Below are positions 13,344 through 27,428 of a stretch of DNA of 28,951 nt, one piece after another. The notes beneath the pieces are model-generated. The model ran no database searches, was not told where the DNA came from, and saw only the letters and a program-made list of their open reading frames with translations. The position numbers were made by a program, and so were the translations under genes. The stretch is from positions 1 through 28,951 of the IMG/VR virus record IMGVR_UViG_3300031566_000275; one strand, written 5' to 3'. The number at the start of each line of letters is the position of its first letter. The stretch's first letter is position 1. The DNA is from a virus.

Positions 13344-13643
13344 ATGGCAATTGATGTAACATTTAATCCGGCTTATACAAAAGGCATCACTGTTGCCCCG
13401 ACAGCCTCATCTGCGTCGTCGGCTATTGGTTTCGGATCAAAGGCTTTGTGCATTACAAATCTTGGCTCAGTTGTTGTATATGTCAGAGTAGGAGATTCTA
13501 GTGTTGCGGCAACGGCAGCAGATTATCCAATTTTGCCGCTTACTCAGTTATCAATTAGCAAAGAACAAGATGCAACGCACGTTGCGTATTTGGCGGCATC
13601 TGGGACTGGTTCTTTGCACATTATCCCAGGCGAAGGATTCTAA
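13344..13643 (+). CDS. Small beta-sandwich-like virion protein (100 aa)
   Basis: Start at ATG 13344 after AAAGGAATCAA; the longer in-frame start at 13308 lies within the previous gene. The chain is Ser/Ala/Val-rich with alternating strands (SKALCITNLGSVVVYVRVGD, then PILPLTQLSISKEQDATHVA) and ends HIIPGEGF. The pattern 'L.ITNLG...VYVRVGDS...A...D.P......' is known in phage proteins of unknown role near head/tail junctions. Probably structural. Confidence 0.6.
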   Translation: MAIDVTFNPAYTKGITVAPTASSASSAIGFGSKALCITNLGSVVVYVRVGDSSVAATAADYPILPLTQLSISKEQDATHVAYLAASGTGSLHIIPGEGF

Positions 13644-13645
13644 AG

Positions 13646-14512
13646 ATGTTTCGCAGGCGAACAAGAGACAGAGCTAGGGCTAGAGCCTCGGGCCAATCCG
13701 CTTGGACCCCTGCGCAACTCGGCGCAGCCCTGGCCCTGTGGCTTGATGCTGAGGATGCGGATACGATCACGCTGAACGGCAGCAACGTGAGCCAGTGGGA
13801 TGACAAAAGTGGGAACGGTCGCAATCACGTTCAGGCCACGGCTGCGAGTCAACCGCCGCTCATCTCTGCTGCCATCAACGGGAAGCCTGCCTTGCAGGCG
13901 ACGACGGCTGCGCAATTCGTCGAGATAGCCGACGGCAATCCGACGTTTGGCACGACCGACCTCGACGCAATCGCTGGCGATCTCCACTCTGTGTTTACCG
14001 TGATGAATGGTGGCAACGGAACAGGTTTCTATCAGTCTAACGGAGGCCGCGCTGGTATCGGGTACGGCAAAGCGGGCGGCATCGGCAGTGCGGGCACGTT
14101 TGTAGTGGGGCTGCTCACTCATGACGGGTCGAATGTGGCTCTCACACCGCCACGTTGGTTTGTCCAGCAGAAAGGCTGGAACGGAGTTTCTACGAACGGT
14201 GCAGCAAACAACGCAAACTGGCACCCCGGTGCTCTGAGCACAAATGCTGTGGTGGGCATGGTGTGGAACGGGTCAACCACTGTTGCAACGGTCAACGGCA
14301 CACTATTCGCAAACAGCGGCGCACCGTTTACTTCGCCAAACCAAAACGCTCCCGCACGAATCGGATCAACCGCAAGTACGTTCGGAGGTGCTGGAACCGC
14401 TGGTGGCGGCAACGCTCAGGTCGGTGAGGTTGTCATCTGTGGCACCGCGCTGTCTGTAGCAGACCGCCAGCGCCTCGAAGGCTACCTAGCATGGAAATGG
14501 GGAGGCATCTAA
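13646..14512 (+). CDS. LamG/concanavalin-like adhesin, upstream paralogue (288 aa)
   Basis: A very basic N-terminal tail (MFRRRTRDRARARASG) is followed by the lectin-like signature LALWLDAEDADTITLNG (29-45), SQWDDKSGNGRNHVQAT (49-65) and a C-terminal RLEGYLAWKWG. This is the pattern of phage LamG-type jelly-roll domains that bind glycans or decorate virions. It ends in a TAA directly followed, in the same frame, by the ATG of its paralogue. The NLPxxHPY motif that normally follows WKWG is missing here but occurs at the start of the next protein. Replaceable adhesin or decoration protein; target unknown. Confidence 0.75.
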   Translation: MFRRRTRDRARARASGQSAWTPAQLGAALALWLDAEDADTITLNGSNVSQWDDKSGNGRNHVQATAASQPPLISAAINGKPALQATTAAQFVEIADGNPTFGTTDLDAIAGDLHSVFTVMNGGNGTGFYQSNGGRAGIGYGKAGGIGSAGTFVVGLLTHDGSNVALTPPRWFVQQKGWNGVSTNGAANNANWHPGALSTNAVVGMVWNGSTTVATVNGTLFANSGAPFTSPNQNAPARIGSTASTFGGAGTAGGGNAQVGEVVICGTALSVADRQRLEGYLAWKWGGI

Positions 14513-15286
14513 ATGGCACTCGAACTAGTAAATAACCTCCCCTACGACCACCCCTATCGCTGGGATGGCACCGCTGTTGGCGGGCAGAAGCTATGGCGTC
14601 CTGATGAGCTGGGAGCATCACTTGCACTTTGGCTGGATGCTGAGGATACGGCGAGCATCACGCTGAATGGATCAACGGTTAGCCAGTGGGATGATAAGAG
14701 TGGCAATGATCGTCACGTTTCTCAAGCAACTGCGGCCGCACAGCCGTCGTACCAGACTACAGGCTTGAACGGTAAGCCAGCTCTGGCTTGGGGTGCTGTC
14801 GCCAACTCAAAATTCCTAAAAGCAACAGCCGTCACAAATTACTCTCCAAAACGATTTTTTGGCGTAGCTGATTACGACGGCTCAGATCCTTTTTCCAATT
14901 TTGTAACTGTTTTTTCTCACGACGTAGTTGTGAGTCAAGATTTTCTTCGCTCGAATAACACTGGAACAAGTTGGGTCAACGTCAACCCCGTGTTTCAGAA
15001 TGGTTCGTCAGCATCGACTTTGGTCGCTCTGCCGGAAATTAGCAACCCCTTTGTATTTTCAACCGACTACGAACAAACTGCTAATCGGCCAAACATCTGG
15101 ATTGGGTCAGATCGCGCCATTACTGACCGATCTTGGAAAGGAAATATTTCGGAAGTCATTGCGTTGAGCGTAGTTCCAACTGCCGAAATTAAACAGCAAA
15201 TTGAAGGCTACCTAGCATGGAAGTGGGGCCTGACTGCCAACCTGCCCGTATCGCACCCCTATAAAACCACTCCACCCACAGCATGA
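14513..15286 (+). CDS. LamG/concanavalin-like adhesin, downstream paralogue (257 aa)
   Basis: Paralogue of the gene before it: LALWLDAEDTASITLNG, SQWDDKSGNDRHVSQAT and EGYLAWKWGLTANLPVSHPY. The first 20 residues carry NNLPYDHPYRW, which looks like the lost C-terminus of the upstream domain. The ATG touches the preceding TAA, and its Shine-Dalgarno GGGGAGG (14499-14505) lies in the codons for the upstream WKWGG. A 20-nt stretch (14477-14496) recurs exactly at 15203-15222, so the duplication is recent or kept alike by gene conversion. Probably a second virion-surface lectin-like domain. Its stop overlaps the next start (ATGA). Confidence 0.75.
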   Translation: MALELVNNLPYDHPYRWDGTAVGGQKLWRPDELGASLALWLDAEDTASITLNGSTVSQWDDKSGNDRHVSQATAAAQPSYQTTGLNGKPALAWGAVANSKFLKATAVTNYSPKRFFGVADYDGSDPFSNFVTVFSHDVVVSQDFLRSNNTGTSWVNVNPVFQNGSSASTLVALPEISNPFVFSTDYEQTANRPNIWIGSDRAITDRSWKGNISEVIALSVVPTAEIKQQIEGYLAWKWGLTANLPVSHPYKTTPPTA

Positions 15287-15675
15287 ACGACTACCTAATT
15301 TTTGATACGCAAGCTGCTGCTGACACGGCCCTTGAGACGATCTATGCCAACATGATTGGGGAAATTGATTCTCCCGATCTGCTTGATGTGGCCACGGGCC
15401 AGGTAGTAGACAAAGACAGCTTGACCCCTGAGCAAGCCGTGCAGACTGACTCTAGCTCGCGGCATTTCCCGATCTTCGGAGTGAATGCAGCTACTGGGGT
15501 TAAGAGTGAGACAGCAGGCTACACAACTGCTTGGGCAGTGGCGCAAGAAACGGTCGATAGTAAATGGGTGTTCCAAAAGCCTGCCGATGCACTGATGGTG
15601 GGCGTTACCGGGTACACGGTTGAGCCTTATGATCCAGACTGGTTCCCACAGCCAGCGGAGTTGACGCCAGAATGA
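15283..15675 (+). CDS. Hypothetical protein linked to adhesin genes (130 aa)
   Basis: ATG overlaps the previous stop by 4 nt, so it is coupled to the LamG genes. The sequence (MNDYLIFDTQAAADTALETI and so on) has an N-terminal strand-helix, then an acidic loop region, SETAGYTTAWAVAQETVDSK and a KPADALMVGVTGYTVEPYDP segment near the end. This arrangement is familiar from small phage proteins next to tail fibre genes that may act as fibre accessory or assembly factors. No catalytic motif. Role inferred from coupling only. Confidence 0.65.
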   Translation: MNDYLIFDTQAAADTALETIYANMIGEIDSPDLLDVATGQVVDKDSLTPEQAVQTDSSSRHFPIFGVNAATGVKSETAGYTTAWAVAQETVDSKWVFQKPADALMVGVTGYTVEPYDPDWFPQPAELTPE

Positions 15676-23409: not shown

Positions 23410-25824
23410 ATGCCAGCACTATCAGTCAGCGTTCCCTTTCCAGTTTTCCAAAACCGTGACGGTCAGCCGTTGGACAATGGATATGTTTACATCGGTACCG
23501 TCAACCTTGATGCACAAACGAATCCTGTGCAGGTGTATTTTGATGAGGCTTTGACGATCCCGGCAGCGCAACCTCTACGCACCATTAACGGCTACGTGTC
23601 AAACGCTGGCACACCTGCCCAGTTGTATGTGAACGCAGTTAACTTTTCCATCAAGCTGCTAGATGCAAAAGGGACGTTTGTTTACAGTTTCAACAATGGA
23701 ACCCAAAGCGCACAGGGCACCTACACCGACTGGATAGCAGACACGTTTACGGGCAATGGCGTACAAACCTTGTTTGTTCTTGAGCGAGCGCCTGGCTCAG
23801 TTGGCAATTGCGATGTTTCAGTCAACGGCCTTACTCTGGTCCCAAATACAGAATTTAGCCTGTCTGGTGCCATTCTGACGTTCGTTACGGCCCCTGCGAA
23901 TGGGGCTACTATTCTTGTTCGCTACGGTGCCGCAGCTACTCAAATTTCCGCGACGTTTAGCACAGAATTACAGACTGCTACCGCTGGGCAGACCGTCTTT
24001 TCGTTGAACGATCTAATTTACGATCCAGGCACCAATGCGCTGGCGGTGTATGTCAACGGGCTGCGCATGGTGAGTGGCGTCGACCTGCTTGAGAGCAACG
24101 TCGACGAGGTGACGTTTACCAGCGGGCTATCGCTTGGTGATGAGGTGCTGTTTATTGCCGGTCGCACGATAAACGAGTCAATTGACGCAAATTCAGTAAG
24201 CTATTTGCCAGGCGGCACGGGCGCTGTTGCCACGACTGTGCAGACGAAGCTGCGCGAGTCGGTGAGCGTGAAGGATTTTGGGGCTGACCCCACGGGCGCG
24301 ACCAACTCAACAACAGCCCTGCTCAACTTCTTCAATTATTGCATTGCGACTGGCACGCCAGGGCACATAGCCGCAGGTGAATACTTGGTGACTGCCGGTG
24401 TTTTGGCGTTCGACAACGGGCACGTTGACACGCCTTGGCCGAACATTACAACGGACGGATACCTAAACGTAATCTTCAAGCGCGCAGACGCAACTGATGC
24501 GCCAATGATCTCAATTACCAACGGCACAGCGGTGAGCGGCGCTGGCAATTGGTGGCAAGGTGGCTCTCTAGGAGGCATTTTGTTTAACCAAAACGGTCAA
24601 GCGAAGGCCGCAAACCAACACGGTCTGTTGCTGATTGGGATGGTCGGAACGCATTTCGGCCACATGAGAATGGACGATGGTGGCGGCTCTTGCATTTACC
24701 TTCAAGAAAAACTGTATCTCGGCTTCAATCCTGACCCCTACAACATAGGTTCTTGCGTCTTTGACGCGGCAGAAGCAAACCGCTGCGGTGGGTATGCGTT
24801 CCACAACAACAACGGCGTTGGTCTTACACACTGCACCATAAAATACGTTCGCGCAATTGAGAATGTTGGCGGCGCGTTTTTCGGATTCGGGACATCGACA
24901 ACAGTTAATGTCATTTCGGCTGGCTCTTGCTCGGGCTGGGCGCTGGGAAACAGAAACGACAGTATTGGGGCCGCGCAGCGATTCATACTTTTAAGCGCAG
25001 AGCTTGACGACATGCAGTATGGCATTGATATGCGCCGTGTCAGCAACTCCGTATTTGGCGTCGGTGCGGTACGGTTCGTTCATCGCTACAACTTTGGGCC
25101 GCTGAACCCTGCTGGTGGGTACTGGCCCCGCATTGTTGTGCAGTGCTCGACAAACTCTGTCGCGATGAACAACCTTCGCATCATTGACCGCATTCAATCT
25201 GGCGGCACCAAGCCAGATTTGGGACAGTTTTTTGATTTTGGAAGTGGTGGCGCTAACACAGCTGATATTCAAATCCAGCGTCAGATCATTGACAACGCTG
25301 GTTTTGGCTTCACGGTGGCTGACTATTACACCAATTTTAACGCCAACTCCACAATTCAATACACCGACGCAAAAAGTCTGCCAATCATTGATACGTTAAA
25401 GAAGACAGTTGCTTTGGCGCGTGCCCCGACGACTTTTGCAGTCCCGACTGGCGGCTTTACAACTAGCCCCAACACGGTTCAATACAGCACAGAGTTGACA
25501 GATATGTCGGGCTCTTATGACCCGGCTACGTGGACCTACACGTGTCGCAGCCCAGGCGTTTATAGAATTGCAGGGCGTATTGTTTTGGCTGTTGCCATCG
25601 GCACTCGAATTCGTATGGCGATCATGGTTAACGGATCGGCCGCACTTACCCGGTTTTATTACGCCACCACGGCAAACGCCCAATGCTATTTTGTTGAAGG
25701 GGAATTGGATTTAGCTGCCGGTGCCACTATTAACATCAACGCAGATCAAAACACCGCTGGCGCGGTAAACCTTACGACCATGACCGCTGCAATGGAAAAT
25801 CAATTGTCTATTACGCAAGTCTAG
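23410..25824 (+). CDS. Tailspike with P22-type head-binding domain, pectate-lyase beta-helix and C1q-like tip (804 aa)
   Basis: Receptor-binding tail protein. Residues 1-110 (PVFQNRDGQPLDNGYVYIGT, VNLDAQTNPVQVYFD, INGYVSNAGTPAQLYV) match the head-binding domain of P22 tailspike (PIFTESRSF...NGKIYIG; QPLIINAAGKIVYNGQ). Residues about 105-260 hold two copies of a beta module (FTGNGVQTLFVLERAPGS; TATAGQTVFSLNDLIY). VSVKDFGADPTG (285-296) opens a pectate-lyase-type beta-helix to about 660. The tail (665-804, PTTFAVPTGGFTTSPNTVQY, RSPGVYRIAGRIVLA) is a C1q-like trimerisation or glycan-binding domain. Polysaccharide cleavage is likely but no catalytic residues could be fixed. AAGG precedes the ATG by 13 nt. 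Confidence 0.9.
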   Translation: MPALSVSVPFPVFQNRDGQPLDNGYVYIGTVNLDAQTNPVQVYFDEALTIPAAQPLRTINGYVSNAGTPAQLYVNAVNFSIKLLDAKGTFVYSFNNGTQSAQGTYTDWIADTFTGNGVQTLFVLERAPGSVGNCDVSVNGLTLVPNTEFSLSGAILTFVTAPANGATILVRYGAAATQISATFSTELQTATAGQTVFSLNDLIYDPGTNALAVYVNGLRMVSGVDLLESNVDEVTFTSGLSLGDEVLFIAGRTINESIDANSVSYLPGGTGAVATTVQTKLRESVSVKDFGADPTGATNSTTALLNFFNYCIATGTPGHIAAGEYLVTAGVLAFDNGHVDTPWPNITTDGYLNVIFKRADATDAPMISITNGTAVSGAGNWWQGGSLGGILFNQNGQAKAANQHGLLLIGMVGTHFGHMRMDDGGGSCIYLQEKLYLGFNPDPYNIGSCVFDAAEANRCGGYAFHNNNGVGLTHCTIKYVRAIENVGGAFFGFGTSTTVNVISAGSCSGWALGNRNDSIGAAQRFILLSAELDDMQYGIDMRRVSNSVFGVGAVRFVHRYNFGPLNPAGGYWPRIVVQCSTNSVAMNNLRIIDRIQSGGTKPDLGQFFDFGSGGANTADIQIQRQIIDNAGFGFTVADYYTNFNANSTIQYTDAKSLPIIDTLKKTVALARAPTTFAVPTGGFTTSPNTVQYSTELTDMSGSYDPATWTYTCRSPGVYRIAGRIVLAVAIGTRIRMAIMVNGSAALTRFYYATTANAQCYFVEGELDLAAGATININADQNTAGAVNLTTMTAAMENQLSITQV

Positions 25825-25853: not shown

Positions 25854-27428
25854 ATGAGTAAAGCACTAAACAACAAGGTCAAGTTGAACGATGCCGTGAG
25901 CGTCAAAGACTTCGGGGCTGTGGGGGATGGCGTGGCTGATGACACGGTGGCGATTGCATCCGCATTAGATGCGGTAACTGCCACTGGTGGTGGTGTTGTC
26001 TACGCACCACCTGGAACCTATTTTATTGCCGGTGATGGAATCATCAATATCAAGGCTGGCGTAACGCTCCGTGGCGCAGGTGCTGCTACTCGTTTTGTGT
26101 CTGGCACAGGCGGACGTAACGCAAACCACGTTTTTGTTTACTTGAAAGATGGCTCTGTCATTGAAGATTGCAGATTATCGGGGGCCAATTTTGCTCGGCA
26201 ATCTGGCGGTGCTAGCGGCATTGGATTCAACAAAATCGGAATCACAACTCAAGGCGCATCCGTTGGGCAGAACTTCCGAGTTTCTCGCGTTGGTTTTGAG
26301 AAGTTCGCAAATAGTCATGTGTTTGTATTTGACGCGCACCGCGCTGCAATCATTGACGGTTGCTATACGTTTGGGCAACAAGCTGGAAGTTACGTTGATA
26401 TCGATGCCAATTACGCTGTGACAAATTGGAATGCAACGTATGACTTGGCAAGGATCACAGCGGGAACACAAGTATACGCATTGACCAATTTTTACAACAG
26501 CGGATCAAACACGAAAGATGTAATCATCACCAACGGCAGGCACTTCAACATTAACGACGCCTTCTGTGGGGTTAACAGCGGGTCTAGCCGTCACACAATC
26601 ACAAACAATATCTTCGTCAAGAACGCGACCGGATATTACGGCGGATGGGGCTTGGACATGAATGCAGCAGGCGACTTCTGCGTCATGACCGGCAACTACA
26701 TTGAAGGCGGAACAGCAGGATGTCATTTAGTTGGCAGCAACAGCGCAACCGTCACGGGTAACACGTTTGCGTGTGATAGAGGCGTCTGGATCGAAGACCC
26801 GAACAGCGTTGAGAACACAATAACCGGCAACACAATCACGCTAACAAACTTCACACCTGCGGTTCAGAAGGTCGGGATACGAATCGACGGCGGCAGAAAC
26901 AATTTGCTTTCCGGGAACGCGATCAATTGCAACAGCATTGCAACGGCCAAAGGCGTGCTGTTTTCAAACCTCGGCGGCTCGGCGTCAAGCGGAAACTTTG
27001 TTGTTTCAAACATCATTACCAATGCCGCAACTGGAATTGAGTCTGCTGATGCAAACAACGATGCAAATTGGGCCGTTGCGAACGTGTTTAGGATCGTAAC
27101 AACGCTTTTCCCTCGTCAGGTAAACAGTAACTATTTCCAGAATATTAAAGGATTGTCTGGAACATCAAGCAACGCTAACAACTTTGGCGGCACCGTTACT
27201 GTCTCTGGGACAAATACGTCACAAGCGGTTTCTTTCACAAATGTAGAACCTGACACAAATTACAGAATTATTCTTACTGTTCGTTCGGTGTCTGGTTCGC
27301 CAGCAGCTTCTTCATATGTGCCAGTGGCCCCAAGTGCGTTAACAACGGGCGGCTTTACTGCAAACCTACAAGCAGCCCCCGGAGTCGGCACAGCCATAAG
27401 TTTTAACTGGTTGCTTTTTAGAGCGTAA
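25854..27428 (+). CDS. Second tail protein: pectate-lyase beta-helix without head-binding domain (524 aa)
   Basis: It begins MSKALNNKVKLNDAVSVKDFGA, so the chain enters the VSVKDFGAVGDGVADD motif (15-30) at once; no head-binding domain precedes it. Residues 30-430 are Asn/Gly-rich with repeating right-handed helix coils (ITNNIFVKNATGYYG, VTGNTFACDRGV, ITGNTITLTNFTP, LLSGNAINCNS). The last 85 residues (FGGTVTVSGTNTSQAVSFTN, VEPDTNYRIILTVRSVSGSP, GFTANLQAAPGVGTAISFNW) are a C-terminal domain common to phage fibres. It must either attach through another protein, perhaps the first tailspike, or act as a free depolymerase. AAGG lies 7 nt before the ATG. Confidence 0.85.
   Translation: MSKALNNKVKLNDAVSVKDFGAVGDGVADDTVAIASALDAVTATGGGVVYAPPGTYFIAGDGIINIKAGVTLRGAGAATRFVSGTGGRNANHVFVYLKDGSVIEDCRLSGANFARQSGGASGIGFNKIGITTQGASVGQNFRVSRVGFEKFANSHVFVFDAHRAAIIDGCYTFGQQAGSYVDIDANYAVTNWNATYDLARITAGTQVYALTNFYNSGSNTKDVIITNGRHFNINDAFCGVNSGSSRHTITNNIFVKNATGYYGGWGLDMNAAGDFCVMTGNYIEGGTAGCHLVGSNSATVTGNTFACDRGVWIEDPNSVENTITGNTITLTNFTPAVQKVGIRIDGGRNNLLSGNAINCNSIATAKGVLFSNLGGSASSGNFVVSNIITNAATGIESADANNDANWAVANVFRIVTTLFPRQVNSNYFQNIKGLSGTSSNANNFGGTVTVSGTNTSQAVSFTNVEPDTNYRIILTVRSVSGSPAASSYVPVAPSALTTGGFTANLQAAPGVGTAISFNWLLFRA

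What the first reader, a model, noticed from the sequence alone, without database searches (positions are those of the whole stretch)
13646..15286. Tandem LamG paralogues separated by one in-frame stop with an embedded ribosome site
From 13646 to 15286 the frame is open except for TAA at 14510-14512, directly followed by ATG. The C-terminal motif WKWG..NLPxxHPY of the first domain is cut by the stop: its NLPYDHPY part now begins the second protein. GGGGAGG inside the WKWGG codons acts as the Shine-Dalgarno. Thus a two-domain adhesin seems to have been split into two products, possibly with some readthrough yielding the fusion.
Basis: partly seen in the sequence, partly recalled or inferred. 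Interest (0 to 1): 0.68.

Follow-up and report, generated by a model that had tools for sequence, protein, structure and literature searches.

The report
Phage lectin-like pair split mid-domain
A phage makes two neighbouring sugar-binding-type proteins from what elsewhere is one chain, and the cut always leaves the end-piece of the first protein on the front of the second, which suggests that the two must fit together on the virus particle.

Summary
Genes 13646-14512 and 14513-15286 are LamG/ConA-like paralogues in one frame, separated only by TAA, with a GGGGAGG ribosome site in the WKWGG codons. Two other metagenome contigs carry the same junction, so it is not a sequencing error. The homology claim also holds: the start of gene 2 (LPYDHPYRWDGT.FGG..LWRP) matches the linker between domains in single-chain LamG tandems. 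The readthrough idea does not hold. Among 33 distinct relatives of this junction the second gene is in frame in only 9, in +1 in 8 and in +2 in 16, with all three stop codons; every start lies within 8 nt of the stop and every ribosome site is strong. This is conserved gene fission with translational coupling. The cut is obligate: in IMG/VR all 26 LamG genes ending AWKWGGx-stop are followed by a gene with the displaced tail, and all 26 tail-first matches follow a LamG gene end. The displaced peptide is under strong purifying selection, while the domain cores are hypervariable and swapped between near-identical phages. The fold resembles gp15, a separate subunit of the solved Pan3 tailspike. 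My inference: gene 2's N-terminus docks on the gene 1 protein, forming one receptor-binding appendage.

The parts
13646..14512 (+). gene 1: LamG/ConA-like protein, 288 aa, ends ...EGYLAWKWGGI with no LPxxHPY tail
   Evidence: ORF; PHROG 10356 virion structural protein, E 2e-28; tail-less end conserved in 33 junctions
14499..14505 (+). GGGGAGG ribosome-binding site of gene 2, inside codons W-G-G of gene 1
   Evidence: sequence; anti-SD duplex of split junctions mean -9.5 kcal/mol, all -6.6 or lower, against mean -6.4 for unsplit WKWG ends
14510..14512 (+). TAA stop of gene 1
   Evidence: identical in two other contigs
14513..15286 (+). gene 2: LamG/ConA-like protein, 257 aa, begins with the displaced tail and ends with its own LPVSHPYK tail
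   Evidence: ORF; PHROG 10356, E 1e-36; AlphaFold2 pLDDT 74, pTM 0.77; Pan3 tailspike chain 9vyh_p, Z 11.8
14537..14584 (+). displaced tail and linker at the start of gene 2 (LPYDHPYRWDGTAVGG)
   Evidence: invariant or nearly so in 19 aligned; 3.5 bits per column against 1.5 in the core; pS 0.76, pN 0.18
14768..15178 (+). hypervariable core of gene 2 (about residues 86-222)
   Evidence: 27% identity to the close relative L010 where the ends are 80% and 69%; L007/L018 core swap
15242..15265 (+). gene 2's own C-terminal tail LPVSHPYK
   Evidence: 121 of 163 domain ends found with a tail-independent HMM carry the tail in cis
15283..15675 (+). third gene of the cassette, 130 aa, start overlaps gene 2 stop (ATGA)
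   Evidence: a homologue follows gene 2 in most relatives; no family match
13344..13643 (+). upstream small protein often travelling with the cassette
   Evidence: tblastn hits directly before gene 1 in several relatives

Best explanation
The locus is a translationally coupled pair of LamG/ConA-like virion proteins, made by gene fission inside the linker of a two-domain chain. Shown: the stop falls between the last helix of domain 1 (EGYLAWKWG) and its tail (LPxxHPY), so the tail starts gene 2; the WKWGG codons supply a strong ribosome site; gene 2 starts within 8 nt of the gene 1 stop in every relative, in any of the three frames. Inferred: two separate products are made by termination followed by reinitiation; gene 2's N-terminal tail docks back on the gene 1 product as the same peptide would in a single chain, holding the two subunits together non-covalently as a tail-associated receptor-binding appendage. 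The cores between the conserved ends are exchanged by recombination, which would change what is bound without breaking the docking.
For: Frame, stop and distance vary while the split is kept. The association is obligate both ways in IMG/VR. The same linker is found in unsplit tandems L049, L058 and L039, and fused and split states interconvert. The displaced peptide is as conserved as a C-terminal tail (3.5 and 3.4 bits), and its region is not conserved in LamG proteins that do not carry it, so domain 2 itself does not seem to need it. In the AlphaFold2 model of the read-through chain, tail residues 301-320 reach pLDDT 83, among the best of that model; in gene 2 alone residues 1-20 reach 68-69 while the core near them reaches 94 and its own C-tail 92. 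Fold match to Pan3 tailspike gp15, which has 3 chains beside 3 chains of gp14. Core swaps.
Against: No coordinates could be read from the models, so the docking contact itself was not seen, and the two models used different alignments. Tail-less gene 1 and tail-first gene 2 lie within about 40 nt, so linkage and shared descent could keep them together without docking. In L010 and L016 the domain directly upstream of gene 2 carries a full tail, although a tail-less domain lies further upstream in the same chain. The match to Pan3 is by fold only (10% identity).
Confidence: 0.6

Rival explanations
1. Split and coupled as above, but the N-terminal peptide of gene 2 serves gene 2 itself or the virion (oligomer formation or attachment to the neck), and the likeness to a displaced tail is only its history.
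For: The conserved peptide extends beyond the tail motif (RWDGT.FGG); L010 and L016 keep it although the domain directly upstream has its own tail.
Against: The same peptide links domains in unsplit tandems of other phages; single LamG proteins do without it; the cassette sits in different genome places and phage types, which argues against a fixed virion partner.
Confidence: 0.27
2. Stop-codon readthrough makes a minor functional fusion.
For: The frame is open across the stop in the window and in 8 other distinct junctions.
Against: 24 of 33 junctions are out of frame, and TAA, TAG and TGA all occur; TAA followed by A is not known as a leaky context (general knowledge).
Confidence: 0.03
3. 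Two ordinary paralogous genes; the split is kept by physical linkage and common descent alone, with no role for the displaced tail.
For: The two traits lie under 50 nt apart; gene 1 and gene 2 cores are correlated in descent (Mantel r 0.59).
Against: Strong purifying selection on the displaced peptide (uncorrected pN/pS about 0.23); repeated fused/split changes.
Confidence: 0.08
4. Sequencing error or decaying pseudogene.
For: A single in-frame stop between two halves of a tandem is what a decaying gene would show.
Against: Identical in other contigs; a strong ribosome site and conserved starts in 33 junctions.
Confidence: 0.01

Closest known systems
Laminin_G_3 / ConA-like lectin superfamily (PF13385) proteins of phages; PHROG 10356 (virion structural protein)
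   Same: Same fold class; 8 of 89 family members match PF13385 directly; both window proteins match PHROG 10356
   Different: Neither window protein reaches Pfam by itself; here the domain is cut before its tail and the tail sits on the next gene
Pseudanabaena podophage Pan3 tailspike gp14/gp15 (PDB 9vyh)
   Same: A separate ConA-like subunit, gene directly after its partner gene, three copies beside three of gp14 in a solved tailspike; the fold matches gene 2 at Z 11.8; the window's gp10-like protein matches the Pan3 stabilization protein
   Different: 10% identity; no WKWG or HPY motif in gp15; the window cassette lies between the adaptor and gp10 genes, away from the window's own tailspike genes
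Translationally coupled gene pairs with adjacent or overlapping stop and start (PMC3711429, PMC6728339)
   Same: Start within 10 nt of the stop in all 33 junctions; 10 of 33 are ATGA overlaps
   Different: Here the boundary runs through a protein domain and the two products are paralogues
Single-chain tandem LamG proteins (L039, L049, L058)
   Same: Same inter-domain linker WKWG..LPxxHPYRWDGTLFG
   Different: Unsplit

Membership tests
LamG/ConA-like (Laminin_G_3, PF13385) | profile match above the curated cut-off | tested here: inconclusive
   no match for the two window proteins; 8 of 89 family members match, best 8.9e-11
LamG/ConA-like (Laminin_G_3, PF13385) | ConA-like jelly-roll fold | tested here: met
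   AlphaFold2 model pLDDT 74; best matches GH54 arabinofuranosidase and Pan3 tailspike gp15, Z 11.9 and 11.8; low confidence in the middle of the core; gene 1 was not modelled alone
Programmed stop-codon readthrough | frame kept open across the stop in relatives | tested here: not met
   9 of 33 in frame, 24 of 33 out of frame
Programmed frameshift | conserved phase between the two frames | tested here: not met
   three phases and several stop-start distances; at least 8 phase changes on the tree
Translational coupling | start within about 10 nt of the upstream stop, conserved | tested here: met
   33 of 33; criterion from PMC3711429
Translational coupling | translation of gene 2 depends on gene 1 | not testable with these tools
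   needs a reporter or ribosome profiling
Receptor-binding tail appendage | located on the tail and binds the host surface | not testable with these tools
   only fold, gene neighbourhood and core swapping point to it
Receptor-binding tail appendage | modular, hypervariable region between conserved ends | tested here: met

The most novel reading that the evidence does not exclude
A split lectin domain completed in trans: gene 1's LamG domain lacks its C-terminal tail and obtains it from the N-terminus of the next subunit, so that subunits with freely exchanged binding cores always dock through one constant peptide, a plug-and-socket system for combinatorial receptor binding in phages.
Probability: 0.42. 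Interest if true: 0.62.

Novelty: new variant of a known kind. Interest (0 to 1): 0.48.

Why it matters
It would show how gene fission can turn a covalent multi-domain fibre into a two-subunit one without losing the interface, with the ribosome site arising from the codons of a conserved motif. It also gives a recognisable signature (WKWGG-stop followed by LPxxHPYRWDGT) for a probable receptor-binding cassette whose cores are swapped between phages.

Tried and rejected
Readthrough or frameshift as a conserved mechanism (phase 9/8/16). Sequencing error. Host by integrated copies: genome contigs gave only three distant LamG loci in bacterial bins; host stays unknown. The first mixed alignment A3 placed single gene 1 rows on domain 2 and was dropped. 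Sequence search against PDB found no close relative; the profile's one hit below E 0.001 is an S-layer domain protein, 4qvs. Foldseek matches of the read-through model are all weak. A first collection pattern was one base short and is not used. Model coordinates are not exposed, so contacts between the tail and domain 1 could not be measured. The invariance of HP in alignments A7/A8 is partly by construction, because rows were chosen by that motif; the tail counts rest, which used a tail-independent HMM. Literature searches found no description of this split.

Full report
The window is a P22-like podovirus contig: terminase 6266, portal 7507, major head protein 10557, a gp4-like adaptor 12367 (PHROG 637), a gp10-like stabilisation protein 15718 (PF11134, PHROG 578), ejection and DNA-transfer proteins and two tailspike-like genes further on. 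The reported pair lies between the adaptor and the gp10-like gene.

Observation. The frame 13646-15286 is interrupted only by TAA 14510-14512; ATG 14513 starts the second gene; GGGGAGG 14499-14505 ends 7 nt before it. Two contigs from other metagenomes agree base for base at the junction. The two proteins are paralogues, related to PHROG 10356 'virion structural protein'; Pfam Laminin_G_3 is reached by 8 of 89 relatives.

Homology of the gene 2 start. In L049 and L058 (contigs of 100-200 kb), LamG domains follow one another in one chain through the linker WKWG..LPxDHPYRWDGTLFGY..W.P, and L039 has the two domains of this very family in one 555-aa frame: EGYLAWKWGLVSSLPYTHPYRWDGRVFGGVQLWRP. Its split relative L035 reads EGYLAWKWSGLI-stop and MILRNLPYTHPYRWDGRVFGGPQLWRP.

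Frame and stop. Over 33 distinct junctions the second gene is in phase 0 in 9, +1 in 8 and +2 in 16; stops are TGA 17, TAA 15, TAG 1; starts 32 ATG and 1 GTG; stop-to-start offsets are -1 (ATGA, 10), 3 (9), 4 (8) and 2, 5 or 8. A fusion by readthrough is thus not what is conserved. Starts so near the stops are the signature used for translational coupling (PMC3711429). The anti-SD duplex energy averages -9.5 kcal/mol with none weaker than -6.6; the same place in unsplit WKWG ends averages -6.4. The codons UGG-GGN of the WKWG motif are nearly a Shine-Dalgarno sequence already, and one more Gly codon (GGA GGN) completes it, which may be why the cut lies here (inference).

Obligate association. 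With an HMM of the core that does not include the tail, 121 of 163 domain ends carry the tail in cis. All 34 ends of type EGYLAWKW[GS][GS]x-stop are followed by a tail-first gene (32 by the automatic count, 2 more with HPH in place of HPY). Only two tailed ends precede a tail-first gene, L010 and L016, and in both a tail-less domain is fused upstream, as if an extra domain had been inserted at the old junction. DNA patterns over all of IMG/VR gave 26 LamG ends, all followed by the tail-first gene, while 6 unrelated AWKWGG proteins matched by chance and none of them is followed by it; and 26 tail-first matches, all after a LamG gene end. Several contigs in these lists are near-copies of each other, so these are not 26 independent events.

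History. On the gene 2 tree fused and split states change at least 3 times, phase at least 8 times, and one clade of all split forms is rejected (p-AU 2e-5); L039 sits inside a split clade. Many inner branches are weakly supported.

Selection. In proteins that carry it, the displaced peptide holds 3.5 bits per column, the C-terminal tail 3.4, the core 1.5. pS is 0.76 and pN 0.18 over its 17 codons. In LamG proteins without it, this stretch is not conserved.

Core swapping. L007 and L018 are 93-97% identical over nearly 7 kb around the pair (82% further downstream), except for about 455 nt inside gene 2, where no DNA similarity remains; their gene 1 proteins are 99% identical, and the gene 2 ends 87% and 89%, the core 28%. 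The window and L010 show the same for both genes: adaptor and gp10-like proteins 94% identical, gene 2 ends 80% and 69%, core 27%. Conserved ends with exchanged centres fit receptor-binding domains. Pairs such as L006/L032 (gene 1 38%, gene 2 82%) and L032/L041 (76%, 40%) show that the two genes are exchanged apart from each other.

Structure. Gene 2 with 89 sequences gives pLDDT 74 and pTM 0.77, with a poor middle. The best solved matches are GH54 arabinofuranosidase (Z 11.9) and gp15 of the cyanopodophage Pan3 tailspike (Z 11.8, 167 residues, 3.5 A; Foldseek E 5e-4). Pan3 gp15 is the gene right after the tailspike gene gp14, and three copies of each chain are in the solved spike. Pan3's stabilisation protein also matches the window's gp10-like protein. 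So a ConA-like protein as a separate tailspike subunit has a precedent, by fold only. In the model of the chain read through the TAA, the tail and linker 301-320 are among the most confident residues (83, model mean 58), but when gene 2 is folded alone the same peptide falls to 68-69 while its surroundings reach 94 and its own C-tail 92. This suggests that the peptide packs on domain 1. It is indirect: the alignments differ and coordinates could not be inspected.

Conclusion. A conserved gene fission with translational coupling, in a modular, probably tail-bound LamG cassette. The trans-docking of the displaced tail is my best reading and is not shown. Readthrough is not supported.

Noticed in passing
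L007 and L018, 4233-4688: Closely related phages differ by replacement of about 455 nt, the core of gene 2 alone; the same kind of replacement separates the window from L010. Looks like recombination-driven exchange of binding cores.
   Followed up: partly
window 23410-25824 and 25854-27428: Two tailspike-like genes in tandem: the first has a borderline P22-type head-binding domain and a weak C1q match, the second begins directly with a pectate-lyase-like domain. Both contain the motif VSVKDFGA, so this may be another duplicated or split spike.
   Followed up: no
L010 2466-3995 and L016 1-1140: An extra LamG domain with its own tail has been inserted in frame after the tail-less domain, at the old fission point.
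   Followed up: partly
Pseudanabaena phage Pam2 ON014754, about 57604-58305: A homologue is annotated 'botulinum neurotoxin type A'. The likeness is to the ConA-like jelly roll shared by many lectin folds; nothing here indicates a toxin.
   Followed up: partly
window 15283-15675: A 130-aa protein without any family match follows gene 2 in most relatives, including phages without detectable P22-like neck genes nearby; perhaps a chaperone or a third subunit.
   Followed up: partly
window 13646-13700: Gene 1 begins with an arginine-rich stretch, MFRRRTRDRARARA, nearly shared with L010; purpose unknown.
   Followed up: no
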